Part shown: in pieces, positions 31,042 to 55,744 of the stretch | Layout of the letters: every line of letters starts with the position of its first letter | Numbering within the stretch: the first letter of the stretch is position 1 | Assembly: GCF_000194605.1 (NCBI RefSeq) | Contig: NC_015321.1 | Location: forward strand, 2,418,001-2,482,000 | Origin: Fluviicola taffensis DSM 16823 | Lineage (GTDB): Bacteria; Bacteroidota; Bacteroidia; Flavobacteriales_D; Crocinitomicaceae | DNA length: 64,000 bases | Direction of reading: 5' to 3' | The notes under the pieces: model-generated | The model's input: only the letters and a program-made list of their open reading frames with translations | Told to the model about the DNA's origin: nothing | Database searches by the model: none | Translations under genes and position numbers: made by a program

Positions 31042-33510
31042 TTATTCCCAAGCGGTTCCTTCCAGACTGTTTTTCCTGATTTTTATGTTTTTTAGCTTGG
31101 GGTTATGCAAATAATAAATCACCCTAAAAAGCTCTCCTTTTGAACTAAATTTTCTGGTATCAATGAATAAGGAGTATTTAATTTTATTCCATTTCTTTAA
31201 GCGAGGTGGGTCTTGATACTTAGCTGTATGACTTCCCCACAAGACGATTTTTTTAGGATGTATTTGCTCTATTGTAAAATTGATGTAGGCATACTCTTTT
31301 AAATCATCATAATCGGTTAAGAAAATTTCGCCTTCCAACTGAATTTCTAGTCTTTTCCATTTTTTTTGAATATTAATTGCTTGACCAAGATCTATGAAAT
31401 CCTTTTTTGAGCCTTTATCAATTTCATCGACAGGTGCATAAGAAAGTTTTATTTTTTTTCCGTGTCGTGCAAATTGCTTGTATTGTTCGTTTGGAAGTAT
31501 TTTATCGTATTCATGATAATATCTTGCCAATTTCTGATAGACCGAAAGTTGCTTCGTCATTTTTTCATTGATTTGCTTGTTTTTAATACGAACAAGTTTT
31601 AAGTCTTTATTGATTTTGAATAACTGCCCCTCGAATTGCATGTAGTTATTCAAAATGAGGTGTTTTGTTTCACTGTCTAAGCTAACGAGAGGAAGGGTTC
31701 TTTCACATTTGAATGACTTTTCGAATGAAAGCTCTTTTCCAAAAAACGGAACTTGTTTGGGGAGTTTTAATTCTGGATAAGTGACCCTTAGATAATTTAT
31801 GATTGTTGGGGTCAAGTCATTGTGGGAAGAAATTGCGTTAAACTGTTCCGATTTTTTTAGTAAAGGTGAATAAATAAGTAATGGGGTCTGATAACGTTGA
31901 ATTTCCGTTTCACAAAGTAATGAATTTCCATGATCTCCAAGAATAAAGAAAATCGTATTATCGAAATCAGGTTTTTTAGAAGCTTTCTTAAAATAGTTCT
32001 TTAAAGCTTCATCGGTAAACAGGTAACTTCCTAATAGTTCAGAATGATGGTGAATGGCTGCTTTTTGAGCAGGAGAACACTTGATTTTGCTCATCTTCTC
32101 TTTCAATAAGAGGAGGTATTTATCTTTGTTTGGATAAGAATATGGTTCGTGCGTACTAATCGTTAAGAAAACATCTAGCTTTGGGTTCTTATTTTGGTGT
32201 TTTTTATCATCTAGAATCGATTTTTCGAAAAGGTGATCATCTGAATAACCCCAAAAAGATTTTACTCCGTCTCTGACTTTTGAAAACCGAGGTTCCCAGG
32301 AATTTACGGTGTAATCTGTCTGATTATAATCCATGAAATCCCTCATATTAACAAAGCTAAGATCCACACCACAATAAAATCGCGAGTGATAATTTTTCAA
32401 AAGAGAGATTAATGACCAATGACGAGGCAATTCCTCGGTTTGCATAAATTGTTTTTCTGGTGGGTTTGGAGATGAAGCTAATATTGCAGGCAATACATTA
32501 TGAGTTCTTTCACAACTAGATATGAAATTCGGAAAATAGAGACTCTTTGAAGATAGTGAATCCATGAAAGGCATTACATTACAGGGATTTTTAGCACTTT
32601 CTTTTACTAGGAAAGTAGATAAAGATTCTACAATAATGATGACGATGTTTGGCGGACCTTTTGGAGACTTGTGAATGAAATTAGCAAATTCACTTTCAGC
32701 TTTGAGTTCATGAATTAATGAATACTCGTTATTTCTAGTGGATGGATCTGGAAAGAAAGAGTCGTCTAATTCTCTGAACGTTTTTGAATTAATAGATTCT
32801 GTTTCGTTTTTAGCAAAAAAATGCTTTTCGGAAACATCAACAAAGGCTAGTAGTTTGTTATTGATTACACGATCACCTACATAATCTTCTGATTGAATCA
32901 ATTTCCAAGGATAGGCAATCAAAGAGCTGATCATTAAAAGGAAAAAAACAACGAAGACATACTTTCTAAGCCTAAATTTTTTAATCAGTTTGGCTATCAA
33001 AAAATAGCAGATAATTAACAAAAGAGGAAACGAAACGGATAGGAATGTGAGATTGGAATCTAAATTGGCTGAAATAATTAACTCAGAGTTCGTGAGCTGA
33101 TAAAAAGCATCTCCAAGGAGTTGATTTGTTTGTACAAAGTAAACAGTAAGCGTGTAATTTATAAGGATACTTAAAATTGAAATGAGATGAAAGGGGAATA
33201 GGTTTGTTTTTCTGATAATAATCCTAAGAAGTAGAATAAGTAGCATTCCTATTGATGAGATAATTAGTGTCATCATCAAATCCATAATAAAACCCTTTAA
33301 ATGATAAATTGGTTTTAATGGAATTCCAAATATTTCTTTTGGCTCGTTGATGATCTGAAAGATTCTAGAAAAAACAAATACAAAAAATAAGGAAGTTGAA
33401 TATGGAATTACCTTTTTGATGAAGGTTTGAAATTGATTCATGTAGGGTGCTAAATATTTACGCAAACATACTATTTCTGTTTTAATAAATTTTAGAAGCG
33501 ATAGATTCAT
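31042..33510 (-). CDS. LTA synthase-like sulfatase-fold membrane protein
   Basis: This is an 822-residue protein of the LtaS/alkaline phosphatase superfamily. Five membrane helices lie in the first ~190 residues, followed by an extracytoplasmic sulfatase domain: 'PPNIVIIIVESLSTFLVKES' (metal-binding Glu), 'SCERTHNVLPAILAS' (nucleophile Thr region), 'LDVFLTISTHEPYSYP' (His) and 'DNTIFFILGDHGNSL' (Asp-His pair). A beta-rich C-terminal tail follows. Bacteroidota lack lipoteichoic acid, so the protein more likely transfers phospho-head groups to glycans or lipids. A second in-frame ATG (33441) is possible. The leftmost island repeat lies 36 bases upstream, so its promoter now sits at the island edge. 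Confidence 0.85.
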   Translation of the reverse strand: MNLSLLKFIKTEIVCLRKYLAPYMNQFQTFIKKVIPYSTSLFFVFVFSRIFQIINEPKEIFGIPLKPIYHLKGFIMDLMMTLIISSIGMLLILLLRIIIRKTNLFPFHLISILSILINYTLTVYFVQTNQLLGDAFYQLTNSELIISANLDSNLTFLSVSFPLLLIICYFLIAKLIKKFRLRKYVFVVFFLLMISSLIAYPWKLIQSEDYVGDRVINNKLLAFVDVSEKHFFAKNETESINSKTFRELDDSFFPDPSTRNNEYSLIHELKAESEFANFIHKSPKGPPNIVIIIVESLSTFLVKESAKNPCNVMPFMDSLSSKSLYFPNFISSCERTHNVLPAILASSPNPPEKQFMQTEELPRHWSLISLLKNYHSRFYCGVDLSFVNMRDFMDYNQTDYTVNSWEPRFSKVRDGVKSFWGYSDDHLFEKSILDDKKHQNKNPKLDVFLTISTHEPYSYPNKDKYLLLLKEKMSKIKCSPAQKAAIHHHSELLGSYLFTDEALKNYFKKASKKPDFDNTIFFILGDHGNSLLCETEIQRYQTPLLIYSPLLKKSEQFNAISSHNDLTPTIINYLRVTYPELKLPKQVPFFGKELSFEKSFKCERTLPLVSLDSETKHLILNNYMQFEGQLFKINKDLKLVRIKNKQINEKMTKQLSVYQKLARYYHEYDKILPNEQYKQFARHGKKIKLSYAPVDEIDKGSKKDFIDLGQAINIQKKWKRLEIQLEGEIFLTDYDDLKEYAYINFTIEQIHPKKIVLWGSHTAKYQDPPRLKKWNKIKYSLFIDTRKFSSKGELFRVIYYLHNPKLKNIKIRKNSLEGTAWE

Positions 33511-33545: not shown

Positions 33546-33563
33546 CTTTTTTCCTAACTTAAA
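33546..33563 (+). repeat. Left attachment repeat of the island
   Basis: CTTTTTTCCTAACTTAAA, identical to 54396-54413. The bases immediately outside differ on both sides (T versus A before; A versus T after), as expected for an att core left after site-specific recombination. Confidence 0.8.
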
Positions 33564-33765: not shown

Positions 33766-35076
33766 ATGAAATTAAAAATTAATTTTGTCTTGAAGACAGG
33801 AATGGAGGGTGAAATTCCCGTCATTGCCATTATCAACTTCGGGTACAAAGAATTTGATGCACTAAAATTAAAGTACGTTTACAAGCCCCTGAAGTATTAC
33901 ACCGGAATCAAAATTGCTCGCCAGGATTGGAATGAAACACTCAAGCAACCTTTCCAAAAGAGTAAGCAGAATGAATTGCTGAACATTCAGAAAACCATAG
34001 AAGATGTTTTCCAATATCTTCAAATGAAAGATAAAGTTTCCAACGAAGCAATCAAGAATGAATTGGATGTGAAGCTTAAAGGGAAATCGGATGAGGTTGT
34101 CACCAAAGTTCGTTTAATCGATTTCATCAACCAGGAATTCGTCCATCGCGACTCCTATTCGCTTAAAACCAAACAACGTTTTGAATCCTTTGTTAGGCGT
34201 CTTGAAGATTTTGAAAAAGAGATTCGGAAACCACTTTATAGCAATGACATGAATGAGCAGTTGTATGCTCAGTATATGGAAATGAGAAGAGAGAAAGTCA
34301 AAAAGCAAAACAGCCTTTGGCTATCGTTTGCAGATTTCAAGACGGTCATGCGAAGAATTGCAAAGACTTATAATGTGGATGTTTTTATCCCAACCGTTGA
34401 AATATCTCCCAATGATAAGGTTCGATTTTTAAAGTTCGAAGAGAAAATCTATTTGAACTTCGAGCAAATTCAGAAAGTGATTAAGCATAAACCAGATACA
34501 GAGCGAATGAGGGATACGAAATTGATCTTTCTAACGTTGCTTTTTACCGGGTGCAGGTATTCCGATGTATTCAAAGTCAAACCAGAGTTTTCTTATTCCA
34601 AGAATGGAGTTTCTTTTGACTACGCACGATTCATCACCCAAAAGCGCGATGTAGAAGTGGTCATTCCGATCCTGAAGCCATTAAAGGATGCCTGGAAACA
34701 AAACGGGGGTGCAATCGCTCACCAGTATACTGAAGTCGCATTCAATCTGAACGTAAAAGAATTGATTCGCCTGTGTGAGATGGAAGAGAAAATAACCCTA
34801 AGTTTTACAAACAGCAGGGGAAAGAAAGAGTTTGAAACCAAACCTTTCCATAATTTTGTCTCATCCCATACAGGCAGACGTTCATTTATTACCAATTTGA
34901 TTAATTACGTTCCTGTTACCATCCTGACCAAAATCACTTCTCACCAACTCAAAGAAACCAGTATCATTTTTGGATACAACAAAACTTCCTTGCTTGAAAA
35001 TGCAGTGTTGTTTGTGAAAGAGTTAGGTAGGTTACAAGAGAGTAATCAAGATCACTTTAAGATTCGGTTGATTTGA
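33766..35076 (+). CDS. Tyrosine recombinase / site-specific integrase
   Basis: This is a 436-residue phage-type integrase that would catalyse integration and excision of the island. The N-terminal arm-binding domain (about residues 1-95, 'PLKYYTGIKIARQDWNE') is followed by a SAM-like core-binding domain (about 110-215) and the catalytic domain with 'LFTGCRYSDVFKVK' (first Arg), 'SSHTGRRSFITNLI' (H-x-x-R), 'TKITSHQLKETSIIFGYNK' (the H/W and nucleophile Tyr region). The order and length match Bacteroidota element integrases. A TAgaTTTG -7-like box is at 33733-33740. It is the first gene inside the left att repeat. Confidence 0.93.
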   Translation: MKLKINFVLKTGMEGEIPVIAIINFGYKEFDALKLKYVYKPLKYYTGIKIARQDWNETLKQPFQKSKQNELLNIQKTIEDVFQYLQMKDKVSNEAIKNELDVKLKGKSDEVVTKVRLIDFINQEFVHRDSYSLKTKQRFESFVRRLEDFEKEIRKPLYSNDMNEQLYAQYMEMRREKVKKQNSLWLSFADFKTVMRRIAKTYNVDVFIPTVEISPNDKVRFLKFEEKIYLNFEQIQKVIKHKPDTERMRDTKLIFLTLLFTGCRYSDVFKVKPEFSYSKNGVSFDYARFITQKRDVEVVIPILKPLKDAWKQNGGAIAHQYTEVAFNLNVKELIRLCEMEEKITLSFTNSRGKKEFETKPFHNFVSSHTGRRSFITNLINYVPVTILTKITSHQLKETSIIFGYNKTSLLENAVLFVKELGRLQESNQDHFKIRLI

Positions 35077-40997: not shown

Positions 40998-41696
40998 ATG
41001 AAAATAATCCACCAAACTAAAGTCGATATGTCTATTCATGGCATCTCAACAGAATGTGGAGTTTATATGATTCACGTCAAAATTTTAGATATAAACCACA
41101 GAGCGAAAGAAATTATTGATACTCTACTCGATCGTAGTTGGATAAAAAGACTTGGGGTCATCGATCAAAAAGCATACAACGCGAGAGCAGAAAAAACTAT
41201 AACTCACCTTGTTGAAAATATACTAAACCATGTAGAGGACACTGTTACAGAAGAGTTTGGAGAGTATCTAATTTCGGATTCAGCCGGTAATGCACTTAGT
41301 GAAGTACATAAGCACAAGAAAATAGCCCTAGCAGAACTATGGAAGGAACAAATGACCGGAAACCCAGGATTTGACTTCCATACTGAAAGCCCTATGGAAT
41401 TAGTCATTTTTGGAGAGGCTAAATTTAAATCATCAGGAAGCCCATATACTGTTGCACTTAATCAAATCGTGAGTTTTATAACAGATCAAAAAGATGTAAT
41501 GGAACTGGCTGATTTGCAAAAATTGGCTAGTGAGAAATCTATCCAAAATGCTCTAGACAATAAAAAAGGTTTTATTGCTGCTTTTTCTTTAAACGCAAAA
41601 AACCAATCAGCAATTTTTGAGAAAGCGCTAAAAACTGACGCCGCCAAAAATTTGTTGAATTTTGCTGAATTATATCTAATTGGTATTGAAATATGA
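40998..41696 (+). CDS. hamA: Hachiman-like HamA nuclease (DUF1837)
   Basis: This is a 232-residue protein with a HamA/AbpA-like (DUF1837) pattern: 'AEKTITHLVENILNHVEDTVTEEFGEYLISD', 'HKKIALAELWKEQMTGNPGFDFHTESPMELVIFGEAKF'. Asp126, Glu140 and Lys142 (G-E-A-K) form a PD-(D/E)xK nuclease-like active site. In known Hachiman systems HamA is the DNA-degrading effector held in check by the HamB helicase. The gene overlaps hamB by 4 bases (ATGA), as is usual for this pair. A perfect palindrome lies 36 bases upstream. The assignment rests on motif, gene order and size. Confidence 0.8.
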   Translation: MKIIHQTKVDMSIHGISTECGVYMIHVKILDINHRAKEIIDTLLDRSWIKRLGVIDQKAYNARAEKTITHLVENILNHVEDTVTEEFGEYLISDSAGNALSEVHKHKKIALAELWKEQMTGNPGFDFHTESPMELVIFGEAKFKSSGSPYTVALNQIVSFITDQKDVMELADLQKLASEKSIQNALDNKKGFIAAFSLNAKNQSAIFEKALKTDAAKNLLNFAELYLIGIEI

Positions 41697-44026
41697 GTTT
41701 GATTAAAATTATTAATGGTGAAGAATTGCATAAAACACTTAAAATGATTTTGATGCGTATTCATTCCCAAGGTCCAATAGAAGCTAGTGACTTTGAAAAG
41801 CTTGCTTACGCGAAAAAATTTCATGCGGATATTTTTTCGCGTTATGAACAGATGTTATTGAATTTCGTAGGTCTTTTTTACAAGGCTTCAAAGCCAAATA
41901 ACCTTTTGGGTGAAGTATATTCAATCATGGCTGATTCTATCGAATTAGAAACTGGAAATCGATTCACACCTGTCCAAGCCGATGCATTTAAGAAAATTCG
42001 AGATAATGTCTATTTCTCTTTTTCAGCACCAACGAGTGCAGGAAAATCATACCTTTTTAGAGAAATGATTAATCGGTATTATGGCGATATAGTGATTATG
42101 GTTCCATCTCGTGCGCTAATTGCGGAATACATGATTATCCTGGAGGCATTAGTTGATACTGAGACTATGGTTTTACAGTTTGTAGAAATAGTCAATATTA
42201 AAAAAACAAAAAGACGAATCTTCATTTTGACACCTGAACGAGGTGTAGAAATTTTTAAGCATATTCCTAAACTAGCAATTGATCTAATTCTATTTGATGA
42301 AGCTCAAATTTCAGAAGAAGAAGTCCGTGGAATGAGATTTGATTCATTCGTCCGACGCATTGACAAATTCCTCCCGGAGGTTAAGAAAGTATTTACACAC
42401 CCATTCGTTTTAAATCCAGAAGCACAATTGTCTAAACATGACTTTTATGACCATTCAGCGGCGTTTTGCTACAAACAAAATTCAGTCGGAAAAATATTTC
42501 TGAGCATTGAAAATGAGCGTTTCAATTACTTCTCGCCATACAAATTTAACGAAACAGAATTATTGAATTCGGTGGAGGACATCGTTAAAGAAAAGCTAAA
42601 ACGAAACGGAACAGCACTTATTTACACTTCGAAAACAAAAATATACGACAGGACATATTTGATCGAATTTGATCGGTACATACAGCTTTGTGATAAACTG
42701 ACCGACCCGAAAGCATTAACCTATATAGAAGAACTTCGTGCGTTTATAGGTGCTTCTAAAAGTGGAAACAAACATTCAAGCCTTATTGAAATGATGGAGA
42801 GAGGAATAGTTATTCATCATGGATCAATACCATTAAAAGCTCGATTGATAATTGAAGCTTTTGTCAATGACAACTTCGCGAAAATTTGTTTCTCTACCTC
42901 AACATTAATTCAAGGTATTAATATGCCATTCGATATCGTTTGGATTAGTGATTTTCGTTTTACCGGATCTGACTCAAAAAAAATATTAGACTTAAAAAAC
43001 CTAATTGGAAGAGCTGGAAGAAGTACGGGAATTGTCGATTCCTTTGACTACGGATACGTAATTATCGAAAAAAAGAATGTTCCTACGTTTATCACTAGGC
43101 TTCAAGAACCTTCAGTGATTAAGCCAATTTCTCAATTAGCTGAAGAGGTGAAGAACATCGATATCGATTTAATAGACATTGTTGATGCGATGAAAAAGGA
43201 TGATTTCAATGATGAATTACATTTAACTAATACTCAGGTTCGCAGAATTGAAGAGTTTGACGTTGATAAAGACATCCGCTATATATTAGATAATCTGATA
43301 TTAGATAACAAAGTTCTGACAGGAAAAAAGTATTATTCTCTTAGCGACCATTATAGACGAAAGATTAAACAATCTTTTGAAAGAATATTTGTAGCTCATT
43401 TGAGAAGAAAAGAGCTAAATAAAGGAGAAAAGTCAATTTTAAGTGCCTCTATTCCAATCTTACTTTGGCAGATTCAGGGTCGATCATTTGCAGAAATGGT
43501 TAATCTTCGTCATGGTTATTTAACCAGTCGTAGATTAGTTAGAGATATTAGAAATAGAGTTAAGAGAAAAGAAATTACAGGATCTGATGCTAAACGTCAA
43601 CTTGCTGAGATTAAAATTCTTCGTTCTCCTATGGCAGCGCCACTTCCAGATTCTAAAGTTAGAGCACCAAGCTTGTTTAATTCTGATGAGTCTATTGTTG
43701 ATCTTGATTATGACAAATTAGTTTATGATACATATGATTACTTAGATAAAGTTATAGGCCAGTCTTTGACTGATCCGATTTGCGGGGCATTACAACTTTT
43801 CAACAACAAATATTCTGATGAACGTGCTATTGCTCTTTACAACTATATTAAATACGGCACTAATGAAACAAAGGAAATTTGGCTATTAAAGTATGGGTTT
43901 AGTTATGATGATGTTGATTGGATAAAGAATTATATCGACTCAATAGATGAAAATGAAATAGTCTTTTCACGAACTATCAGGGAACTTAGCCCAGCCCAGC
44001 AGGAAACGATTAAAAAATACATTTGA
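41693..44026 (+). CDS. hamB: Hachiman-like HamB SF2 helicase
   Basis: This is a 777-residue DEAD/DEAH-like helicase of the Ski2-like kind. Motifs: a Q-motif-like 'FTPVQADAF' (91-99), Walker A 'APTSAGKS' (112-119), 'MVPSRALIAEY' (Ia), 'DEAQ' (202-205), 'STLIQGINMPFDIVWI' (motif V region), 'LIGRAGRSTG' (motif VI). In Hachiman, HamB translocates on DNA and controls the HamA nuclease when phage DNA is altered or repair intermediates appear. A conserved GRAGRS and an intact ATP site indicate an active ATPase. It is translationally coupled to hamA and followed after 20 bases by the cyclase-like gene. Confidence 0.82.
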   Translation: MSLIKIINGEELHKTLKMILMRIHSQGPIEASDFEKLAYAKKFHADIFSRYEQMLLNFVGLFYKASKPNNLLGEVYSIMADSIELETGNRFTPVQADAFKKIRDNVYFSFSAPTSAGKSYLFREMINRYYGDIVIMVPSRALIAEYMIILEALVDTETMVLQFVEIVNIKKTKRRIFILTPERGVEIFKHIPKLAIDLILFDEAQISEEEVRGMRFDSFVRRIDKFLPEVKKVFTHPFVLNPEAQLSKHDFYDHSAAFCYKQNSVGKIFLSIENERFNYFSPYKFNETELLNSVEDIVKEKLKRNGTALIYTSKTKIYDRTYLIEFDRYIQLCDKLTDPKALTYIEELRAFIGASKSGNKHSSLIEMMERGIVIHHGSIPLKARLIIEAFVNDNFAKICFSTSTLIQGINMPFDIVWISDFRFTGSDSKKILDLKNLIGRAGRSTGIVDSFDYGYVIIEKKNVPTFITRLQEPSVIKPISQLAEEVKNIDIDLIDIVDAMKKDDFNDELHLTNTQVRRIEEFDVDKDIRYILDNLILDNKVLTGKKYYSLSDHYRRKIKQSFERIFVAHLRRKELNKGEKSILSASIPILLWQIQGRSFAEMVNLRHGYLTSRRLVRDIRNRVKRKEITGSDAKRQLAEIKILRSPMAAPLPDSKVRAPSLFNSDESIVDLDYDKLVYDTYDYLDKVIGQSLTDPICGALQLFNNKYSDERAIALYNYIKYGTNETKEIWLLKYGFSYDDVDWIKNYIDSIDENEIVFSRTIRELSPAQQETIKKYI

Positions 44027-47285: not shown

Positions 47286-48134
47286 TTATTCAAATTTTTC
47301 GTATCCTGGTGGTGTTGCCTTAAATTTTTTCTTTTTAGGATCAATTTTTTTTTGTTGTTCAGCATCAAGACTGCTTACAGGTAATGAAATAACTTGGGTT
47401 GAAAAAAGGTTTTGTCCTTTGTGGCGATATATGATTCTTTTGAAGGAATCTTTGAAAGGTGAAAAGCCAATTGAATCACCAAATTCACCGGTGTTACAAA
47501 TCACCACATTACAAAACACAAGGCGTGAAATTGCTTCTGCCAAAAAATAGTATGATTCTGTGTCCGGATTATGAGCAATAATTACTAAGTGATGAATCCG
47601 TCCTTTGTACACTACAAATCTTTCAATATCAAAAAAGTCAGAACATATAGCAATACCTATTTTTCCGAATTCGTCAGCATCTAGAATAAAAATTTCTGGT
47701 TGGGACAATAGGGTTGCTCCTGCAAACATCTCTTCTTCGTATCTTGAATAAAAAGTTTTACCGAAATAAAAGAAGGAAGTACTTCTAGATTTTTGATCCT
47801 CAGGCCAGTTTTTTGGTACTATAACGACAGCTTTATTACTAACACAGTTTCCGTTCCAGACAAAATCAAGTCCCGCTATCACGATAGCTCCAGAGGAAGC
47901 ACTTAATTTTCTGAGTTCGTATTCATATCCAAGCGGAACCGAAAGTTCTGGAATAAGGATAATATTAGGTTTTCCATAACCATTCATTAAATCGACAAAC
48001 CCTTTTTTAATTTCATACCATGCTTTTTCCTCGCTATGAATAGACATTTTATTAGGGGCATTTTTAGGCCAAGCAACATCACTTTCAACAATAGTCTGAA
48101 TGAATCCGATTTTCAAATTTTCTTGATATACCAT
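47286..48134 (-). CDS. Nitrilase-family protein of the RT operon
   Basis: This is a 282-residue carbon-nitrogen hydrolase-fold protein. The nitrilase E-K-C triad can be placed at Glu63 ('NIILIPELSVPLGYE'), Lys126 ('FYFGKTFYSRYEE') and Cys164 ('GKIGIAICSDFFDIERF'), with 'VIIAHNPDTESYYFLAEAIS' after. Its stop-to-start distance to the upstream RT gene is 3 bases. RT plus nitrilase pairing is known from DRT type 1 (UG1) and related UG/Abi defence RTs, where the nitrilase part may be fused or separate. Its role there is not settled; the likely product or trigger here is unknown. Confidence 0.82.
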   Translation of the reverse strand: MVYQENLKIGFIQTIVESDVAWPKNAPNKMSIHSEEKAWYEIKKGFVDLMNGYGKPNIILIPELSVPLGYEYELRKLSASSGAIVIAGLDFVWNGNCVSNKAVVIVPKNWPEDQKSRSTSFFYFGKTFYSRYEEEMFAGATLLSQPEIFILDADEFGKIGIAICSDFFDIERFVVYKGRIHHLVIIAHNPDTESYYFLAEAISRLVFCNVVICNTGEFGDSIGFSPFKDSFKRIIYRHKGQNLFSTQVISLPVSSLDAEQQKKIDPKKKKFKATPPGYEKFE

Positions 48135-48137
48135 AGT

Positions 48138-51100
48138 TTATTCCTCGATTAATTCTTGGTAATTATCCCTATTCATTTGTTTGAGGTGAATTGGGATAAG
48201 TTGCCTAGGTTGATGATTTGATACCGAGAGCTGCTGCTTTTCTAATTCCAATTGACTGAAATCAATATATTTAATGAATGCTTGAATATCAACAAAATAA
48301 GGAGGGTCTAAAGAAGTGTCATCAACGAATGAATGTCCTTTTTTTGTTTCTAAATATCGAATCATTGCTGTCTCTTGATTTCTTTTAGAAAAACATCCGT
48401 CTATAATGTCTCTTGTTACAGAAGATATTGGAACGTTTTTGAGTTTAACCTTTGCAAGGCTGAGCCAGTTTTGCTGATGTCCCAAAGGATTCCATCTATT
48501 TGGCAAGTCATTATTCTTTGACAGCAAACAGATAAGCAATGATCCCAGTGAATTGATAATACTTTCATTTCTTCTATTACTAATAAACGGCATAAAATTG
48601 TCTGTATCGTATGCTATAAAGCGATTATCATAAATTAAGTCATCTTTTGCCCTTAGAGTTATTTGTTTTTTTCGAACCATTAGCCTTAGTGTTTCCCAAG
48701 TTAGGGGCTCAGTTCTGGTAGAAGGTTTATCAATCCAATCTCGGTCAAGCTTAAAATTGTTTGGATGAATATTTCTTGAGTAATCTGCCTTTTGACTAAA
48801 ATCAAAAATATCGATTGTCTCAAATTTTTCTTTTAGGGCAACTGCTATCTGTTTAATAACTTCTAAAGCCATCCATTCTCCTACACGCGGATCAAATATT
48901 ATATGCTCTTTAGATTCCTGATTTACTTCAACCTCTCTCTGTTGCAACCATTCAATCCAATCATATAAAGTTATGTAGTCTTTTAACGGAACTGTTTTTC
49001 GTCTAATTTTTGCAAGAATATCATATTCTGTGCTGGCCCCTTCGTGAACTAATCCTTGATAAACATCGAATAGCCAACCTTCATTTTTTTCGAACGAAGA
49101 TTTATTTTCATCTATTCCTTTAAGCAGTTCAATATTTAAATTTTTTGGGAAAAGCTGGATAAGCACCTGATCATTAATCTTTGATGGATTTAGAAGAGGG
49201 ACAACGTTTTTCCACAGATAAGGTTCTTTATTTTCTTCATAAGGTAACTGATTATATAACCACCAGATCCAAACACTGAAGTCATAGTTTGTATTCCTAC
49301 AGAATCTATTAGGATCATCCCAATTTATTAGATTATACTTCTGAATCAACCCTTTTTTATCTTCTTCAAGAAGATAAAGAATTGTTCCTGAACAAAATTT
49401 AAAAAGATCAAGAGAATTCTTCTCATAAGTCTTAGACTTTTCTGTTATACTTCCATCAAAGTATTTAAAAAGACTATCTTTCAAAATATCTTGCATAAAT
49501 CCCTTACTTCTTTTCAATTGCTTATACGAAGAATTTTTACTCGTGACGATTCTAAATGCCTTTAATAGCAATTGAGTAATTACCTGAAGTGTTAAGGAAT
49601 GAATAAAGGTGATTGATAAGTTGTTAGTTTCACCACCACCTTTTAAATCCTCAATTTCTTTTAAGACCTTATTAATCCGTAAGCTACCGGATTTTGATAA
49701 GAATTCTAAAATTCGAGACCATAATCTAACCTTTTGATGATTTTCTCTAATTGCCTTTAGCAATAATTTAATAGTTCGATCAGAAATTTTTTGTTCATTC
49801 GTATCAAGAACAATTTGCTCCTTTTTAATTAGCTCATTTGTAAGTTTAATTTCTGATTTAATTACCGAAGTGTCTTCCTTCTTCTTTTTGCTCTTTTCTA
49901 ATTCTATACTAAGATTTACCAGTTTGCTTTGAAGTCCATAATAAGCTTCAATATTAAATGTAAGCTGTGGTACGAGTGATGACAACATTCTTGCAGCAAA
50001 GGCTACTCTAGTGTCACGTCGCAATTCCTGATCTGGAAATTCAGTAACCAACAAATGTTCTATATCCGCTATGAGACTTTTCTCTTCATCAGGACCCAAA
50101 AGATGGAATTCGGTGCTTGCAATTTTAGACACTTTAGCTAAAGTTTGCGTCATTAGTGGGCTTGGGAAGTCGGGATCTAACTTTGCTGCTTCTACAGCAG
50201 ACTGATATAATTTGCCATCTTTTTTCTGATCTTCACTAGCTTCTAAATATTTACCAAGTTCTATCGGCTCCGTTTTCGTAACATTGAAATTAGTACCCAA
50301 CTCTTCTCCTTCTATAATCTGTCTGTATTCCTCTAACCATTTTGTTAAGTCTTCAAACGAAGTAGCAAGGATGACGTGATCATCAACATACCTGAAATGG
50401 GCGATGTTTTTCTGAGTGTTAAGCTTATCATTAATTATCTTATCTATCTTTAGCAGTGCCACATTCGATAAGAAGCCAGCTACAAATAGTCCAGTAGGCA
50501 AATGGTTAAACTCACCAGATTGGGCTGATATTTTTTTTAATTCTTCATCAGTCCATCCAACGGTATCAATTTCAAATGCCAATAAATTGCTTATTAAATC
50601 GTAAAGTTTTTCTTCTTGATTAGGTAAGTATTCTCTAATGTTTGATTCAATTATAGCATTATTAAGATTAGGATAAAATTTTTCCAAATCTACTCCAGCC
50701 CAGAACAATTGACCACTAAGATTGTCAGTCCAATATGAACTTTCGATATAGTTGACTTTGAGAGGATGAGTATTGTCTAACTTTTTATTCACCTCCAACA
50801 TTTCTATTTCGTTTTCATCCAACTCTTCAGATATTGCGCCATTACCCGAAAGAAATTTTGAAGTAAGATTTATATGTCGACGATAGAGAGGCCAGCTTTG
50901 GGACCATTTACGGTAAGTGTTTTTCGTGGTGTTCCTGTAATATCCAAAATTCAACTCGCGTTTTTTTGATGCCGCATCCCATTCATAAAAAGTAGATATA
51001 TACAATCGATTACCATAGCTCCAAAACGGCATGAGATAATCTAATTCTTTGCCAATGATATTCACGACAGCTAACCATGTAACCTGATCTCGCACTTTGA

Positions 51101-51362
51101 TCCAAAATGTTTGCCGTGTTCTCGGCCCGTCATCATCCTTCTTTTTAGGAAACGCAACTGGTAATATCGGGTTAAGATTGTATGATCCATTTAATAAACT
51201 CTCTTGGATTGATCGCAACTCTTCCTTGAGATTGATTTCAAACTGAGCTACTTCCAATTCATCGAACCAAATATCTCCAGGCTGATAAAAAGACTTCGCT
51301 TTTTCCCATGCCCAGGTGAGGTTTTTAGTTTCTGCTATTTGATCTAAGGTATTCATTGACAT
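48138..51362 (-). CDS. UG/Abi-type reverse transcriptase (defence-associated RT)
   Basis: This is a 1074-residue protein, assuming the start at 51362. The RT core (about residues 60-345) shows 'RTRQTFWIKVRDQVTWLAVV', 'FWAGVDLEKFYPNLNNAI' (motif A, Asp225), 'LPTGLFVAGFLSNVALLKID' (motif B, 288-307) and 'FRYVDDHVILATS' (motif C, YVDD 325-328), so all catalytic acids are present. About 700 residues follow, with a coiled coil (~505-555) and a long alpha-helical part, as in large UG RTs. Upstream in-frame codons to 51476 would overlap the primase gene by 152 bases; 51362 or 51356 leaves 32-38. No maturase or endonuclease domain and no intron or retron context were found. DRT1-like by nitrilase linkage. 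Confidence 0.88.
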   Translation of the reverse strand: MSMNTLDQIAETKNLTWAWEKAKSFYQPGDIWFDELEVAQFEINLKEELRSIQESLLNGSYNLNPILPVAFPKKKDDDGPRTRQTFWIKVRDQVTWLAVVNIIGKELDYLMPFWSYGNRLYISTFYEWDAASKKRELNFGYYRNTTKNTYRKWSQSWPLYRRHINLTSKFLSGNGAISEELDENEIEMLEVNKKLDNTHPLKVNYIESSYWTDNLSGQLFWAGVDLEKFYPNLNNAIIESNIREYLPNQEEKLYDLISNLLAFEIDTVGWTDEELKKISAQSGEFNHLPTGLFVAGFLSNVALLKIDKIINDKLNTQKNIAHFRYVDDHVILATSFEDLTKWLEEYRQIIEGEELGTNFNVTKTEPIELGKYLEASEDQKKDGKLYQSAVEAAKLDPDFPSPLMTQTLAKVSKIASTEFHLLGPDEEKSLIADIEHLLVTEFPDQELRRDTRVAFAARMLSSLVPQLTFNIEAYYGLQSKLVNLSIELEKSKKKKEDTSVIKSEIKLTNELIKKEQIVLDTNEQKISDRTIKLLLKAIRENHQKVRLWSRILEFLSKSGSLRINKVLKEIEDLKGGGETNNLSITFIHSLTLQVITQLLLKAFRIVTSKNSSYKQLKRSKGFMQDILKDSLFKYFDGSITEKSKTYEKNSLDLFKFCSGTILYLLEEDKKGLIQKYNLINWDDPNRFCRNTNYDFSVWIWWLYNQLPYEENKEPYLWKNVVPLLNPSKINDQVLIQLFPKNLNIELLKGIDENKSSFEKNEGWLFDVYQGLVHEGASTEYDILAKIRRKTVPLKDYITLYDWIEWLQQREVEVNQESKEHIIFDPRVGEWMALEVIKQIAVALKEKFETIDIFDFSQKADYSRNIHPNNFKLDRDWIDKPSTRTEPLTWETLRLMVRKKQITLRAKDDLIYDNRFIAYDTDNFMPFISNRRNESIINSLGSLLICLLSKNNDLPNRWNPLGHQQNWLSLAKVKLKNVPISSVTRDIIDGCFSKRNQETAMIRYLETKKGHSFVDDTSLDPPYFVDIQAFIKYIDFSQLELEKQQLSVSNHQPRQLIPIHLKQMNRDNYQELIEE

Positions 51363-52332
51363 CTTTAAAGTTATTAGGTAGCTGACGTTTTGCAATAGAT
51401 TTACCAACGCTGTTGAATTCGGACCGTAATTTTTGAAAAAACCTTTCCCCAGCATCATCTCTGTCAGGTATGACAATTATTTCAAAATCCATCAAGGCTG
51501 GAATAAGTGATTTATCAAAACTTGAAGCACCTAGAACACCAATACAATAATAACCAAGCTGTATCATAGAAAGTGTATCTGGTATGCCTTCACAAATAAA
51601 TAAGTGATCTCCAAGCTTCATTTGTTGTAGACAACTTAAATTGTAAGTAGGTTTTATTAGCCCGATTAAGTTTAGATATTTTGGTTCTTTATTATTAATT
51701 CGACGAGCTTGTATATAATTGACTCTTGATACCGGATCAATAAATGGGAATAAAATCACAGGATCCCACCAAATTGAAGTGATTCCGTATTTATCATGAT
51801 TCTTTGCAAGGCCGCAATTTAATAATTGATCATCTCCCCACTTTTTTCTTAAGTCTTCAAAAAAGATAGACGGATGTTGCAAATCACGTATTTGCATTTG
51901 TTCAATAATTGATTCTTTAAACCCTCTGTTCTTCAAATAATCAATTCCTGATTTACTAATAGTAGCATGACTTATTAACCATTCGTAAATTTCAGAATTA
52001 GCATGTATTTCAATCTTAGGAATAACTCTCTTTTTTAAGGATGGTGATGAAAATTGTTGAATATTAGCAGTTCCACCTAAAAAGGCATTTTCGAGCCAAC
52101 TACATGATGATAAAAAATTTGAACCACTATATTTTTCAACAAGAGTTATTACATCTCCTCCTTGATTGCAGCCATGACAAAAAAACATCCCTTTCTTTTC
52201 ATCAAATTCCAAGCTAGGTGTATTTTCTTCATGCATGAAGCAAAGAACTTTTTTTCTTTTTACCTCGATTCCAAGTTTTATAGCAACTTCTGTGATAGAT
52301 AATTCTCGAAGTCTATTTAAATCAAATTTCAT
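51325..52332 (-). CDS. DnaG-like primase/TOPRIM protein of the RT operon
   Basis: This is a 335-residue protein. The N-terminal CHC2 zinc finger, 'VLCFMHEENTPSLEFDEKKGMFFCHGCNQGGDVITLVEKY', has Cys31, His34, Cys52 and Cys55. The C-terminal TOPRIM domain has 'HLFICEGIPDTLSMIQLG' (Glu248) and 'IIVIPDRDDAGERF' (Asp290, Asp292). These are the essential elements of bacterial DnaG; the middle is short, and no helicase-binding domain follows. It is the first gene of the operon and overlaps the RT start by 38 bases, so the three proteins are almost certainly made together. It may prime cDNA synthesis or act as a nuclease; a DNA-synthesising defence complex is inference. Confidence 0.88.
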   Translation of the reverse strand: MKFDLNRLRELSITEVAIKLGIEVKRKKVLCFMHEENTPSLEFDEKKGMFFCHGCNQGGDVITLVEKYSGSNFLSSCSWLENAFLGGTANIQQFSSPSLKKRVIPKIEIHANSEIYEWLISHATISKSGIDYLKNRGFKESIIEQMQIRDLQHPSIFFEDLRKKWGDDQLLNCGLAKNHDKYGITSIWWDPVILFPFIDPVSRVNYIQARRINNKEPKYLNLIGLIKPTYNLSCLQQMKLGDHLFICEGIPDTLSMIQLGYYCIGVLGASSFDKSLIPALMDFEIIVIPDRDDAGERFFQKLRSEFNSVGKSIAKRQLPNNFKDVNEYLRSNSRN

Positions 52333-52364: not shown

Positions 52365-52440
52365 CAAAGATATAATTTGATTTGAATTTATTATCACCTA
52401 ATCATTTTGCCGATTATCTAAACATGTCATTTATTATCAC
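52365..52440 (-). promoter_or_regulatory. Promoter and direct repeats before the primase-RT-nitrilase operon
   Basis: On the minus strand TAtcTTTG (52372-52365) matches the -7 box, 32 bases before the primase start. No clear -33 TTG is present. The 12-mer ATTTATTATCAC (plus-strand text) occurs at 52386-52397 and 52429-52440, 43 bases apart, just upstream of the box, a plausible regulator site. Confidence 0.45.
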
Positions 52441-52469: not shown

Positions 52470-53327
52470 CTATGCGATTTCTCTTTTCAGTTCCTCGATA
52501 AACTCTGAAGAATTAAGATTTGTGAATTCCAATATTTTCCGGTACAAACAAGAACGCAATAGTTCTGAGAGGTTTACGATTATTTTACCTAAATAGGCAT
52601 GTTTCTCTCTTGAATCCATTTCATTGAGTTCTACACTAGACCCATGTACGATTTCACTTCTTAGTTCATATGCTTTAATAAGAATGTTATATACTTCTTC
52701 CCGATCATATTTAGTTGAAAGAAATTTAGAACATCTGGTTGCAATATTTCGTTTAATGGAACCCTCATTGTTTTTTACTAATAGAGCTTCAAATGCGATC
52801 ATTAAGTCGATAACTTGATCTTCCTGTTCAGATTTTTGAATTGAGAAGAGGTATCGACGGAGAGCTATTTGAATCGGTTGATTTTCAGATTGAAGTTGAT
52901 ATCTTTTCCAATAATCTTTAATCTTTTCAGAGTCTTCTATTTTGAGAAAATATTCCTCTGAAAAATGAGCTGATACCTTAGGATTTGTTGTGAATCCAGC
53001 TTGACGGTATTCTCCTTCAGACATAATATGACGAAGGGCATAAGCAACCTTCGTTTTACCACCCAAGAAAATTGCAAAGAAAAGGTTCAAATCATCGAGC
53101 AATTTGAATAATTTCCTTGGAAATGTACTTTCATTACTTTCTGTGTATTCATATTCAATAATAAATTGTTGGGTTTTAAGATTGTCATATTTTATTCGAT
53201 CATATATTTCTTCTAACTCATGATCGGCACCTTTTCGAATGATTATATGATCACTTAACTTAATTTCAGTTAACTCAGAATTAAATCCCAAAAGAAGAAT
53301 TTTGTCTTTGCGTTGAATTTCTCTCAT
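52470..53327 (-). CDS. HEPN-domain protein (ApeA-like)
   Basis: This is a 285-residue protein. The last ~120 residues are a HEPN-type helical domain: 'DQVIDLMIAFEALLVKNNEGSIKRNIATRCSKFLST' and 'AYELRSEIVHGSS', with the RNase motif R-x4-H at Arg223 and His228. The N-terminal ~150 residues ('HIIIRKGADHELEEIYDRI', 'HFSEEYFLKIEDSEKIKDYWKRY') form a recognition domain like that of other Apea-HEPN proteins. Known ApeA-like proteins cleave RNA and stop growth upon infection. It follows the AbiV-like gene after 10 bases, suggesting a two-gene unit. Confidence 0.78.
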   Translation of the reverse strand: MREIQRKDKILLLGFNSELTEIKLSDHIIIRKGADHELEEIYDRIKYDNLKTQQFIIEYEYTESNESTFPRKLFKLLDDLNLFFAIFLGGKTKVAYALRHIMSEGEYRQAGFTTNPKVSAHFSEEYFLKIEDSEKIKDYWKRYQLQSENQPIQIALRRYLFSIQKSEQEDQVIDLMIAFEALLVKNNEGSIKRNIATRCSKFLSTKYDREEVYNILIKAYELRSEIVHGSSVELNEMDSREKHAYLGKIIVNLSELLRSCLYRKILEFTNLNSSEFIEELKREIA

Positions 53328-53337
53328 TTTCTAATGG

Positions 53338-54105
53338 TTAATCGTTAGGATCTTTAACTTCTTCCTGGGATGGATCCTTGGTTATTTTAATTGGATTACG
53401 ATTCTTTATTTCATCTCTACGACTTGCGATTATTTCTGCAATTCTTTCCTCTAACTTAATATTCTTAAAAATCTCTTTATTCTCTTCAGGTATACTTTCT
53501 AAGTATTCGACAATTTGCAAGATTTGGGTTTGAAAATTCTCAACTATTCTATGTGCAACCAGGTATTCATCTTCCGTCACCTGCATTGGTGTTTCAATGC
53601 GATTAGAATAATCGACGTAAAACCCTTTATTCTTTTGAAGATTCGCATTATCCCACCAATCAAATAATTCAGGTAGGGTTCTGAATAATGCTAGCGCTTC
53701 TTTTTTTGCTTCACGAACGATTGTTTCTCCAGAATCTGATATTTGAATTCTCCCCGAAATTTGATCTCTCGATTTTTCGACTATGCCCATCATAAGCGTC
53801 ATGATAGGATACATTATACTTATTAAAGACGCCAAATTATGTTTAATAATATGATCAGTAAAGAATAAGTGTATCCTTTGAATATCTTTAAGCTTAAATC
53901 CGAAATGCTGAGCATAAATCAGAACACCTGAGACTGATTGTTCTGTAGAGAGAATAAGAAGTGATACCGGAATACCATAATGACCGGTTTCGGATGCAGC
54001 TTCTGCCGATTTCTTGTGCATTTCAGCAGATTCGAAGTTCTTTTTTGCAGCTTCCAGGTATTCATCTTCTTTAATTGTCTTAAGGAGGTTACGTTCGATT
54101 TTCAT
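53338..54105 (-). CDS. AbiV-family abortive infection protein
   Basis: This is a 255-residue helical protein. The N-terminal part 'DEYLEAAKKNFESAEMHKKSAEAASETGHYGIPVSLLILSTEQSVSGVLIYAQHFG' follows the AbiV pattern (repeated helices with '...AL.iLa.EE..K...' replaced by 'SLLILSTEQSVSG'). The C-terminal tail is charged (about residues 200-255, 'LEERIAEIIASRRDEIKNRNPIKITKDPSQEEVKDPND'). In Lactococcus AbiV blocks phage late gene translation when it meets a phage protein. It is the outermost island gene on the right, co-directional with the HEPN gene. Family assignment is moderate because similarity is limited to the N-terminal half. Confidence 0.65.
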   Translation of the reverse strand: MKIERNLLKTIKEDEYLEAAKKNFESAEMHKKSAEAASETGHYGIPVSLLILSTEQSVSGVLIYAQHFGFKLKDIQRIHLFFTDHIIKHNLASLISIMYPIMTLMMGIVEKSRDQISGRIQISDSGETIVREAKKEALALFRTLPELFDWWDNANLQKNKGFYVDYSNRIETPMQVTEDEYLVAHRIVENFQTQILQIVEYLESIPEENKEIFKNIKLEERIAEIIASRRDEIKNRNPIKITKDPSQEEVKDPND

Positions 54106-54475
54106 AATGAATAGTATGTGTTTCAGTTTCTTGAACTAAAGTAAATTAATTTCGATATGTTACACCTGATACAATCTAATCTTCACATTATTTAAGAATC
54201 AACGACGAGAATGGCTACTTTTTCATTTGGTTACGAATTGATGAATCTTCCGAAGAATCCTTCTGACCTCATTCTAAACCATCTGAACTTTTTTGATACC
54301 TTTAAATGTGTGTAGGATTTCAATTCTAACCCTTTTTCTGTACCTAGCAGGTTAAAAGGTTTCAAAATATTTGATTTTCAGTTGGTTCAGGCGAACTTTT
54401 TTCCTAACTTAAATAAGAAAAGGCACTGCTTCTGATTAAAAAACAAGTTCAGTGCATTTTGCAAATAATTGAAAG
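54106..54475. other. Right end of the island and adjoining gene-free stretch
   Basis: The 370-base gap contains no gene. It holds an imperfect att-like copy (GAACTTTTTTGATACC, 54285-54300, then TTTAAAT), arm-like blocks TAGGATTTCAA (54313-54323) and CCTTTTTCTGTACC (54331-54344), and the exact 18-bp right repeat (54396-54413). The last 62 bases are chromosomal upstream sequence of the DUF2851 gene. Confidence 0.5.
54396..54413 (+). repeat. Right attachment repeat of the island
   Basis: CTTTTTTCCTAACTTAAA, identical to 33546-33563 and in the same orientation. It lies 63 bases before the DUF2851 start codon. Excision at these repeats would remove 20850 bp and leave one copy between the LTA-synthase-like and DUF2851 genes. 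Confidence 0.8.
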
Positions 54476-55744
54476 ATGAATGAAAATTACCTCCACTTTC
54501 TCTGGAAAAACAAACGTTTTCCGACTCATAATTTGACTACAATTGAGGGTCGAAAAATTGAAATATTACACGTTGGAATTCACAATCACGATTCTGGCCC
54601 CGATTTTTTCAACGGGCAAATTCGTATAGATGAGATTCATTATTCTGGAAACATTGAAATGCACGTCAAATCCTCCGATTGGAACTTGCATGGACATCAG
54701 TTTGATCCAGCCTATTCCAATGTGATTCTGCATGTGGTTTACGAACACGATCAATTGATTTTCATTGAAGGAATTCCGATTCCAACCGTAGAATTGAAGA
54801 GAATCATCGATTGGGAAAACTTCAAGTGGTTTAATCAGTATTACAAAGGCAATAAAACCATTCTTTGCGAATCTTTCCTCTCAAGCCTTCCGCCTCCCAT
54901 TTTTTGGAATCAGGTAGAACGCTCGCTTATCCAAAGAGTTCAACGAAAAACTTCAGAGTTAAATCTGCTTCTGCAAACCTCCGAAATGTCTTATAAAGAA
55001 GTTTTATTTCGAATAATCTCAAAGGCTTTTGGTATGAAAGTCAATCAACTTCCATTTCAAGAGCTGGCTAACCGAATTCCGTTTGAGAAATTTATCAAAG
55101 CCTCTCAAAAACAGAAAATGGCCATAGCTTTTGGTGTTAGTGGCTTTTTAGAAAACGATGAATTCAAAAGTAGTTACCAAAACGAATTGAGAGCCGAATG
55201 GGATTTCCAACGCTACAAATTAAAATTACATGCTGCAAACAGACATATTTGGAAATTTAAAGGGTGCAGACCTGGTGGTTTTCCAACACAAAGATTGGCA
55301 CAGTTTGCAACTTTTGTGCATGAAATGGACTGGTCGTCTTCCTTGTGGTTTTTGTCTGCAAAAGAATTAGTGCAACAATTGCAAGGTAAATTGATGAAGC
55401 CTGCCAACGAATATTGGAAAACACATTTTGATTTCGATAAAGAAAAAAGTGCTCCATCTTCCATGAGTATTGGAACTGCAAATACGATTATCATTAACAG
55501 CATTGTTCCCTTTTTATGTTGGCTGACTGAAAAATTAAGCGATGAGGTTTATCGAAATCGGGCTTTCGAGATATTGGAACAACTTCCAGCGGAGAATAAT
55601 GAGAAAGTGATGGCCTGGAAACGAATAGGCTTTGTCGCTAAAAATGCGTTTGAATCTCAAGGATTGATTGAGTTGAGCAATGAATTTTGCACCAAGAAAG
55701 GATGTTTGAAATGCGTGATTGGGAATACCGTTTTAAAAGTATAA
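54476..55744 (+). CDS. DUF2851 family protein
   Basis: This is a 422-residue soluble protein typical of Bacteroidota. The conserved start 'ENYLHFLWKNKRFPTHNLTTIEGRKIEILHVGIHNHDSGPDFFNGQIRIDEIHYSGNIEMHVKSSDWNLHGHQFDPAYSNVILHVVYEHD' and the Cys-rich end 'NEFCTKKGCLKCVIGN' fit DUF2851. The H/D-rich N-terminal part and the C-terminal Cys motif (C..KGC..C) suggest metal binding or DNA-related nuclease activity, but no function is established to my knowledge. It is the first core gene right of the island; its upstream region was cut off from its former neighbour by the insertion. Confidence 0.85.
   Translation: MNENYLHFLWKNKRFPTHNLTTIEGRKIEILHVGIHNHDSGPDFFNGQIRIDEIHYSGNIEMHVKSSDWNLHGHQFDPAYSNVILHVVYEHDQLIFIEGIPIPTVELKRIIDWENFKWFNQYYKGNKTILCESFLSSLPPPIFWNQVERSLIQRVQRKTSELNLLLQTSEMSYKEVLFRIISKAFGMKVNQLPFQELANRIPFEKFIKASQKQKMAIAFGVSGFLENDEFKSSYQNELRAEWDFQRYKLKLHAANRHIWKFKGCRPGGFPTQRLAQFATFVHEMDWSSSLWFLSAKELVQQLQGKLMKPANEYWKTHFDFDKEKSAPSSMSIGTANTIIINSIVPFLCWLTEKLSDEVYRNRAFEILEQLPAENNEKVMAWKRIGFVAKNAFESQGLIELSNEFCTKKGCLKCVIGNTVLKV

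What the first reader, a model, noticed from the sequence alone, without database searches (positions are those of the whole stretch)
47286..52332. Three-gene operon joining a DnaG-like primase, a UG/Abi reverse transcriptase and a nitrilase
Seen directly: a CHC2 zinc finger (Cys31, His34, Cys52, Cys55) plus TOPRIM (Glu248, Asp290/292) protein, a ~1074-residue RT with intact motif A Asp225 and YVDD 325-328, and a stand-alone nitrilase with an E63-K126-C164 triad, overlapping or 3 bases apart. Established: RT plus nitrilase is the DRT type 1/UG1-related defence theme. Inference: the linked primase may supply primers, or a nuclease step, for cDNA synthesis by the RT. I do not know a described system with all three, although it may fall in a known UG subgroup.
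Basis: partly seen in the sequence, partly recalled or inferred. Interest (0 to 1): 0.85.

Follow-up and report, generated by a model that had tools for sequence, protein, structure and literature searches.

The report
Primase–reverse transcriptase–nitrilase phage-defence operon (UG6)
Three tightly linked bacterial genes, for a primase-like enzyme, a reverse transcriptase and a nitrilase, form a defence system of a catalogued but apparently untested kind (UG6); the primase, inherited with the other two in the close relatives examined, is its unexplained part.

Summary
It is not a new combination of parts: PADLOC 2023 has models for the RT (RT_UG6, E 7e-207) and for both partners, named RTasDnaG-like (2e-86) and RTasNitrilase (5e-95). 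My searches of the held library found no paper that tests UG6. Of 44 UG6-like RT rows, all 38 on one side of one well-supported branch, the window included, have the DnaG gene; all 6 on the other side lack it. DnaG, RT and nitrilase distances track each other (Mantel r 0.93-0.97, 32 loci). Natural fusions exist on both sides (DnaG-RT, RT-nitrilase). Catalytic residues are invariant in the three alignments. In one clade, mainly Alphaproteobacteria, a DEDD 3'-5' exonuclease of one of two families lies by the trio in 14 of 16 distinct loci; one family has a PADLOC RT-associated model, the other matched none. The operon sits in a ~20.9-kb integrated island. Best reading: a DRT1-related system whose RT makes DNA, whose nitrilase is the effector, and whose primase acts on that DNA or on phage single strands; the mechanism is inferred.

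The parts
51325..52332 (-). DnaG-like protein, 335 aa: CHC2 zinc ribbon (C31,H34,C52,C55), RNA-polymerase-like part, TOPRIM (E248, D252, D290, D292, D324); no room for a helicase-binding domain
   Evidence: (PDLC03800 E 2.1e-86)
48138..51362 (-). UG6 reverse transcriptase, 1074 aa from ATG (1112 from upstream TTG 51476): RT core about 1-410 (D225, YVDD 325-328), conserved LMTxTLxxVS motif 403-412, mostly helical remainder
   Evidence: (PDLC03782 E 6.7e-207)
47286..48134 (-). stand-alone nitrilase, 282 aa, catalytic E63, K126, E133, C164
   Evidence: (PDLC03804 E 5e-95)
52365..52372 (-). possible Bacteroidota -7 box TATCTTTG, 33-40 bases upstream of the DnaG-like ATG (consensus recalled; such matches are no more frequent here than by chance)
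   Evidence: 4 found, 8.6 expected
33546..33563 (.). left 18-bp direct repeat of the island (probable attachment site)
54396..54413 (.). right 18-bp direct repeat of the island (probable attachment site)
   Evidence: both island ends align to one short stretch in each of three sister genomes
33766..35076 (+). integrase of the island, 436 aa
   Evidence: phrog_1 integrase E 1.9e-13

Best explanation
This is a UG6 defence-associated RT system carried on an integrated mobile island. Working model: the RT, a relative of DRT1, makes DNA (probably protein-primed and template-free, as published for DRT1 and DRT5); the separate nitrilase is the effector that stops growth of the infected cell once the RT-DNA complex is in the right state; the DnaG-like primase works on single-stranded DNA, either the RT's own product (laying down RNA or starting a second strand) or phage replication intermediates, and so couples the RT product to infection. 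In members of one clade an adjacent 3'-5' exonuclease would trim the RT's DNA and hold the system off. Shown here: identity, gene order, intact active sites, co-inheritance, fusions, exonuclease adjacency, mobile context. Inferred: every catalytic and physiological step.
For: Identity: RT_UG6, RTasDnaG-like and RTasNitrilase profiles. Unit of inheritance: DnaG present in 38 of 38 rows on one side of a branch with SH-aLRT 100 and absent in 6 of 6 on the other; Mantel r 0.970 RT-DnaG, 0.957 RT-nitrilase, 0.928 DnaG-nitrilase over 32 loci, largest of 999 shuffles 0.28; DnaG and RT frames overlap in 33 of 35 loci measured, the other two 6 and 8 bases apart. Physical coupling: DnaG-RT fusion of 1467 aa in L011, RT-nitrilase fusion of 1270 aa in L039; the PADLOC UG29 model has a DnaG-like N-part. 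Kinship to DRT1: 99.6% probability against three DRT1-like proteins over profile columns 9-475; DRT1 9yfd is the best solved hit of the 32-row RT profile (E 3.8e-13) and the only one of the nitrilase at E 0.1 (1.1e-9). Active sites invariant. Exonuclease by 14 of 16 distinct loci of one clade and, from the same DnaQ-like family (E 1.4e-19), by a Leptospira RT-nitrilase fusion. Published parallels: DRT1 needs RT and nitrilase activity and primes from S402 (PMC13275509, sections 5 and 9 and passages); ExoI restrains DRT9 DNA (PMC12483538, passages).
Against: No experiment was done or found. DRT1 is one polypeptide and works without a primase; DnaG was found in none of 7 plasmid RT-nitrilase regions searched, so the primase may mean a different mechanism. 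The DRT1 priming serine is reported as not conserved in other class 3 DRTs and I could not align it securely. The lysine that all 12 housekeeping DnaGs have at the column of window residue 232 is a lysine in 0 of 36 UG6 proteins (the alignment there is gapped), and the protein is too short for a helicase-binding domain, so primase activity may be altered. By structure the RT core lies nearer to group II intron, G2L4 and DGR RTs (Z 20-22) than to DRT9 and DRT2 (15-16) or Abi RTs (12-14), which fits templated synthesis too. The window has no such exonuclease.
Confidence: 0.55

Rival explanations
1. The DnaG-like protein makes short RNA primers on an RNA or DNA template that the RT extends, so that synthesis is templated and primer-dependent rather than protein-primed.
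For: Primase fold with intact zinc ribbon and TOPRIM acids; natural DnaG-RT fusion; RT core closest to template-using group II and G2L4 RTs.
Against: Relatives DRT1 and DRT5 make DNA without added primer or template (PMC13275509, section 5); the 6 loci of the other group have RT and nitrilase without DnaG, though in 2 of them (L046, L047) the RT frame is broken; no conserved noncoding block beside the operon in the sets tested and no Rfam match.
Confidence: 0.2
2. The DnaG-like protein is a sensor or decoy that binds phage single-stranded DNA, priming intermediates or the phage helicase, with little or no catalysis needed, and releases the nitrilase from the RT complex.
For: No helicase-binding domain and loss of one lysine conserved in DnaG; DRT1 activation depends on a phage ssDNA helicase (PMC13275509, section 9).
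Against: Metal-binding acids of TOPRIM and the zinc ligands are invariant in 34 of 34, which argues for catalysis.
Confidence: 0.2
3. The TOPRIM protein acts as a nuclease on phage or RT-made nucleic acid.
For: [quoted passage not shown]
Against: The protein has the zinc-binding and RNA-polymerase-like parts of a primase over nearly its full length; a separate exonuclease is present in other members.
Confidence: 0.05

Closest known systems
UG6 defence-associated RT group (PADLOC RT_UG6, with RTasDnaG-like, RTasNitrilase, RTasSbcB; origin recalled as Mestre et al. 2022, not held)
   Same: RT, DnaG-like and nitrilase profiles all match strongly
   Different: Nothing tested in the window departs from it; an SbcB-like gene is absent here but was found in only 4 of the loci read
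DRT1 (class 3, RT-nitrilase; PDB 9yfd, PMC13275509)
   Same: Homologous RT N-part and core, homologous nitrilase with the catalytic residues
   Different: Nitrilase is a separate gene and a primase is added; priming serine not identified; three DRT1-like plasmid loci have no DnaG hit in the ~10.6 kb read
UG5-nitrilase (PADLOC RT_UG5-nitrilase)
   Same: Nitrilase relative (E 1.2e-33); RT plus nitrilase
   Different: Fused nitrilase; no DnaG hit beside the E. coli plasmid example
DRT7/UG10 (RT fused to a primase-polymerase)
   Same: RT joined to a primase activity
   Different: Its primase is given as AE_Prim_S-like / primase-polymerase (PMC8934634 and PMC13213688, passages), which I recall to be an unrelated fold to the DnaG/TOPRIM type; no nitrilase is mentioned in the passages read
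UG29 (PADLOC RT_UG29)
   Same: Model N-part matches the DnaG-like protein (8-295 on 10-324)
   Different: One 2280-position protein; the window RT matches it only marginally (E 6.8e-4)
Bacterial replicative primase DnaG
   Same: Zinc-binding and RNA-polymerase-like domains
   Different: 335 aa only; 97.2 bits against a cut-off of 283.6 for TIGR01391

Membership tests
UG6 DRT | RT best matches the UG6 profile | tested here: met
   688 bits, next best 68.5
UG6 DRT | DnaG-like partner gene | tested here: met
   288.8 bits; 38 of 38 rows on its side of the tree, 38 of 44 in all
UG6 DRT | nitrilase partner gene | tested here: met
   316.8 bits; 42 of 44 rows; in the other two (L030, L049) the contig ends shortly after or within the RT
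UG6 DRT | antiphage activity | not testable with these tools
   no experiment; no held paper found that tests UG6
DRT1 / class 3 | RT related to DRT1 | tested here: met
DRT1 / class 3 | nitrilase fused to the RT C-terminus in one protein | tested here: not met
   separate genes 3 bases apart; fused in L039 only among the 44 rows
DRT1 / class 3 | nitrilase catalytic residues | tested here: met
   E63, K126, E133, C164, 28 of 28
DRT1 / class 3 | protein priming at the DRT1 serine (S402) | tested here: inconclusive
   region cannot be aligned securely; T405, T407, S412 are conserved hydroxyls nearby
DRT1 / class 3 | filament formation and template-free synthesis | not testable with these tools
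   biochemistry needed
DRT7/UG10 | fused AEP-type primase-polymerase | tested here: not met
   the primase part is of CHC2/TOPRIM type and a separate gene
UG29 | single fused protein of the UG29 model | tested here: not met
Replicative DnaG | zinc ribbon and TOPRIM catalytic residues | tested here: met
Replicative DnaG | equivalog score of the DnaG model | tested here: not met
   97.2 against a cut-off of 283.6 bits
Retron / class 2 DRT | adjacent structured noncoding RNA | tested here: inconclusive
   no Rfam match; conservation falls off at the gene ends, but covariation was not tested

The most novel reading that the evidence does not exclude
UG6 is a primase-coupled RT defence in which a DnaG-type primase, a fold unrelated (recalled) to the primase-polymerase of DRT7/UG10, processes or primes on DNA made by a DRT1-like RT, making a duplex or RNA-DNA product that licenses a free nitrilase, with a dedicated 3'-5' exonuclease as the off-switch in some lineages. 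Two unrelated primase folds would then have been joined independently to defence RTs, and DEDD exonucleases recruited more than once as built-in antidotes.
Probability: 0.3. Interest if true: 0.75.

Novelty: new member of a known kind. Interest (0 to 1): 0.5.

Why it matters
UG6 appears to be an untested branch of the RT-nitrilase defences, and its strict primase-RT-nitrilase set gives a clean way to ask what a primase adds to a defence RT. The separate nitrilase and primase genes allow each step to be removed singly, which the fused DRT1 does not. The exonuclease neighbours, two families in the same role, fit the published idea that the DNA product itself is the signal and must be trimmed to keep the cell alive. 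If the primase is needed for defence, it would be a second primase type joined to an antiviral RT.

Tried and rejected
Considered and set aside: (1) Argonaute as an alternative first gene. In L006/L045 (the same genome) a full-length pAgo lies directly before the RT (13-base overlap with the earliest RT start, 5-base gap to its first ATG), but 0 of 11 other members of that pAgo family have an RT, nitrilase or DnaG hit in the ~1.5 kb held around them, less where the contig ends sooner, and the pAgo profile hit no other locus; taken as island neighbours. (2) Family search for UG29: it rang in 256 of 296 genomes and 9 of 14 controls, evidently on housekeeping DnaG, and says nothing about UG29. 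(3) Drt1a search: 0 of 148 genomes and no control rang, so uninformative. (4) UG6 in mobile records: no match in plasmids with two RT queries, none in phages with one; in viral contigs 24 stretches matched a pattern and none was confirmed. (5) Noncoding RNA: no Rfam match; outside the genes conservation falls to background upstream in a betaproteobacterial set of 7, a Bacteroidota set of 3 and an alphaproteobacterial set of 3, and downstream in the first two sets, in the Bacteroidota set after about 100 bases. (6) Terminators and promoters: 0 terminator-like sites, 22 promoter-like against a shuffled mean of 31.7. (7) DRT1 9yfd did not appear among the fold matches (that library ends on 8 April 2026), so its fold was not compared; in the VIA list group II intron RTs come first.

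Rows dropped before counting: of the 45 loci, L044 (second half of the Variovorax gene of L049) and L052 (Bradyrhizobium, broken frames, no DnaG or nitrilase hit) were left out of the tree; L006 and L007 repeat L045 and L030. 43 loci plus the window make the 44 rows. They hold one pair with identical RT region, L018 and L051. RT frames are broken in L042, L046 and L047, which were kept with their first pieces. The alignments used 34, 28 and 32 proteins, not every row. The first profile round was contaminated by the two fusion proteins and was redone without them. Start codons are the first possible ones, so overlaps are upper bounds; a spurious short ORF made L023 look overlapping, mended. The 45 loci were picked by two RT peptide patterns, not by neighbours. 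The exonuclease search used profiles of the loci's own proteins, so distant exonucleases elsewhere could be missed.
Full report
Observation. The three genes are present as described, on the minus strand: DnaG-like protein 52332-51325, RT with ATG at 51362 and stop at 48138 (1074 aa; an upstream TTG gives 1112), nitrilase 48134-47286. The first two frames overlap by 38 bases and the last two are 3 bases apart. Pfam finds a CHC2 zinc ribbon, DNAG_N and TOPRIM domains in the first and RVT_1 in the second; it gives no match for the nitrilase at E 0.001.

Identity. PADLOC-DB (2023) matches the RT to RT_UG6 (688 bits), the first protein to RTasDnaG-like (288.8 bits) and the third to RTasNitrilase (316.8 bits). 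So each part has a catalogued model, two of them named as RT-associated. I recall that these groups come from Mestre et al. 2022, which is not held. Among held papers, PMC8934634 (passages read) lists a UG6 RT with a nitrilase neighbour and dnaG among occasional neighbours of RT genes. My searches for a functional study of UG6 found none; that covers only the held open-access library.

Relatives. UG6 is rare: 2 of 395 genomes of the phylum sample and 2 of 100 of the family sample, own genome included in both. A pattern scan of a collection of 84,980 species genomes with an alignment of three RTs gave 45 loci. After removing one half-gene and one broken copy, 43 loci and the window, 44 rows, went into a tree of the RT region. 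DnaG is next to or fused to the RT in 38 of 38 rows on one side of a branch with SH-aLRT 100, and in 0 of 6 on the other; the label needs one change. The 6 are Bacteroidota with RT and nitrilase only; in 2 of them, L046 and L047, the RT frame is broken. [quoted passage not shown] Nitrilase was found in 42 of 44 rows; in the other two (L030, L049) the contig ends shortly after or within the RT. Pairwise distances of the three proteins in 32 loci correlate at 0.970 (RT-DnaG), 0.957 (RT-nitrilase) and 0.928 (DnaG-nitrilase), against at most 0.28 in 999 shuffles. DnaG and RT frames overlap in 33 of 35 loci measured; L023 and L036 have gaps of 6 and 8 bases.

Fusions. L011 (Proteiniphilum MAG) has DnaG and RT in one 1467-aa protein; L039 (Elusimicrobiota MAG) has RT and nitrilase in one 1270-aa protein. 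Together they argue that all three work in one complex or pathway.

Active sites. In 34 DnaG-like proteins the four zinc ligands, R210, E248, D252, D290, D292 and D324 are invariant. Against 12 housekeeping DnaGs, a basic residue at window 218 is kept (K 18, R 18 of 36), but the lysine that all 12 have at the column of window 232 is a lysine in 0 of 36 UG6 proteins; that stretch aligns with gaps, so the placing is not certain. The predicted fold (mean pLDDT 91.7) matches DnaG first (2au3, E 4e-16; further DnaG catalytic cores, T4 and T7 primases and Twinkle follow). In 32 RTs motif A D225 and the VDD of motif C are invariant; after them comes a conserved motif LMTxTLxxVS (403-412), with S412 in 32 of 32, T405 in 30 and T407 in 31. 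These are candidate priming hydroxyls by position only. In 28 nitrilases E63, K126, E133 and C164 are invariant.

Kinship to DRT1. The profile of 32 RTs finds DRT1 (9yfd) as its best solved relative (E 3.8e-13); an earlier profile of 3 RTs did not list it. Comparison with three DRT1-like plasmid proteins gives 99.6% probability over profile columns 9-475. The nitrilase has DRT1 as its only solved hit at E 0.1 (1.1e-9). DRT1 (PMC13275509: abstract, sections 5 and 9, other passages) makes semirandom DNA from its own S402 without template, needs both RT and nitrilase activity, and causes abortive infection. The paper says S402 is not conserved in other class 3 DRTs, so the UG6 priming site is open. 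The RT model (mean pLDDT 84.6) is closest in its first ~400 residues to group II intron, G2L4 and DGR RTs (Z 20-22); DRT9 and DRT2 come at about 15 and Abi RTs at 12-14, the Abi RTs aligning over a longer stretch, up to residue 708.

A fourth gene. One clade of the tree holds 17 rows, 16 of them distinct, mainly Alphaproteobacteria (L026 is a Leucothrix MAG). Of these 16, 14 have a DEDD exonuclease by the trio: 10 a DnaQ-like protein of 297-325 aa (L015, L018, L019, L021, L023, L037, L038, L043 downstream; L031, L034 upstream) and 4 an ExoI-like protein (L024 and L029 upstream, L025 downstream, L041 on the opposite strand 756 bases away). L026, whose contig begins just upstream, and L042 have none. 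Profiles of the two kinds hit no other locus of the set at E 0.01, nor the 64-kb window. PADLOC has a model RTasSbcB for the second kind; the DnaQ-like ones tested (L015, L034, L043) match only generic DEDDh and PDC-S48 models. No locus has both kinds. A Leptospira RT-nitrilase fusion of another group has an annotated 3'-5' exonuclease 11 bases downstream, which the UG6 DnaQ-like profile hits at E 1.4e-19; the six other plasmid RT-nitrilase regions searched have none, and none of the seven has a DnaG hit. Published work shows that host ExoI degrades DRT9 DNA and that cells without it could not be transformed with DRT9 (PMC12483538, passages), and that RecBCD holds back DRT3 (PMC13174585, a preprint, passages). 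I infer that these exonucleases hold the RT product down.

Context. In three sister genomes none of the window genes of 120 aa or more between 33766 and 54105 was found in the stretches fetched (20-40 kb each). In G481 the two flanking genes (31042-33510 and 54476-55744) lie 136 bases apart; in G473 the left one is missing and the right one lies 107 bases from the next gene; in G404 both are there with about 6.6 kb between them. An 18-bp direct repeat lies at 33546-33563 and 54396-54413, and both island ends align to one short stretch in each of the three genomes (sequence just right of the repeat also resembles a few other places in G473). The first gene inside is an integrase. The operon is therefore in a mobile island of about 20.9 kb, with an AbiV-type HEPN gene, a Hachiman-type helicase and others.

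Mechanism. The RT makes DNA, the nitrilase is the effector, and the primase acts on single-stranded DNA. That the primase is needed is supported by co-inheritance but not shown. The nearest published parallel for a primase is DRT7/UG10, where an RT-primase-polymerase fusion is reported, in a preprint summarised in PMC13213688 (passages), to make palindromic duplex-like DNA; I recall its primase to be of another fold.

Verdict. A real, well-conserved member of a catalogued but apparently untested group.

Noticed in passing
window 33546-54413: About 20.9-kb island with an integrase and 18-bp direct repeats; its genes were not found at the corresponding site of three sister genomes.
   Followed up: yes
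window 41693-44026 with 40998-41696: Helicase of the Hachiman HamB type (PDLC00190 E 8.8e-53) right after a 232-aa gene without a PADLOC or PHROGs match; possible divergent HamA.
   Followed up: partly
window 53338-54105 and 52470-53327: AbiV-family HEPN gene and a second, unclassified gene with a HEPN-like RSEIVHG stretch (RxxxxH), directly upstream of the DnaG-like gene on the same strand.
   Followed up: partly
L006 3985-6054 (same genome as L045): Full-length pAgo directly before a UG6-like RT, next to SIR2, HerA and DUF4062 genes; 11 other members of this pAgo family show no RT beside them.
   Followed up: yes
L015 12097-13008 and nine other distinct loci: DnaQ-like DEDD exonuclease with an extra C-terminal part, joined to UG6 operons; those tested match no PADLOC RT-associated model.
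   Followed up: partly
L011 12213-12845 and L036 12146-12796: Proteins of 210 and 216 aa, hydrophobic and alike by eye (not tested), right after the nitrilase; possible counterpart of Drt1b; no Pfam or PADLOC match.
   Followed up: partly
L095 1753-5984 (Leptospira plasmid): RT-nitrilase fusion whose RT part fits no UG model well, followed 11 bases later by a 3'-5' exonuclease gene of the same family as that of UG6 operons.
   Followed up: partly
G000:C1:3221419-3221583 (L002): Weak second RT match in the own genome within a 534-aa frame.
   Followed up: no
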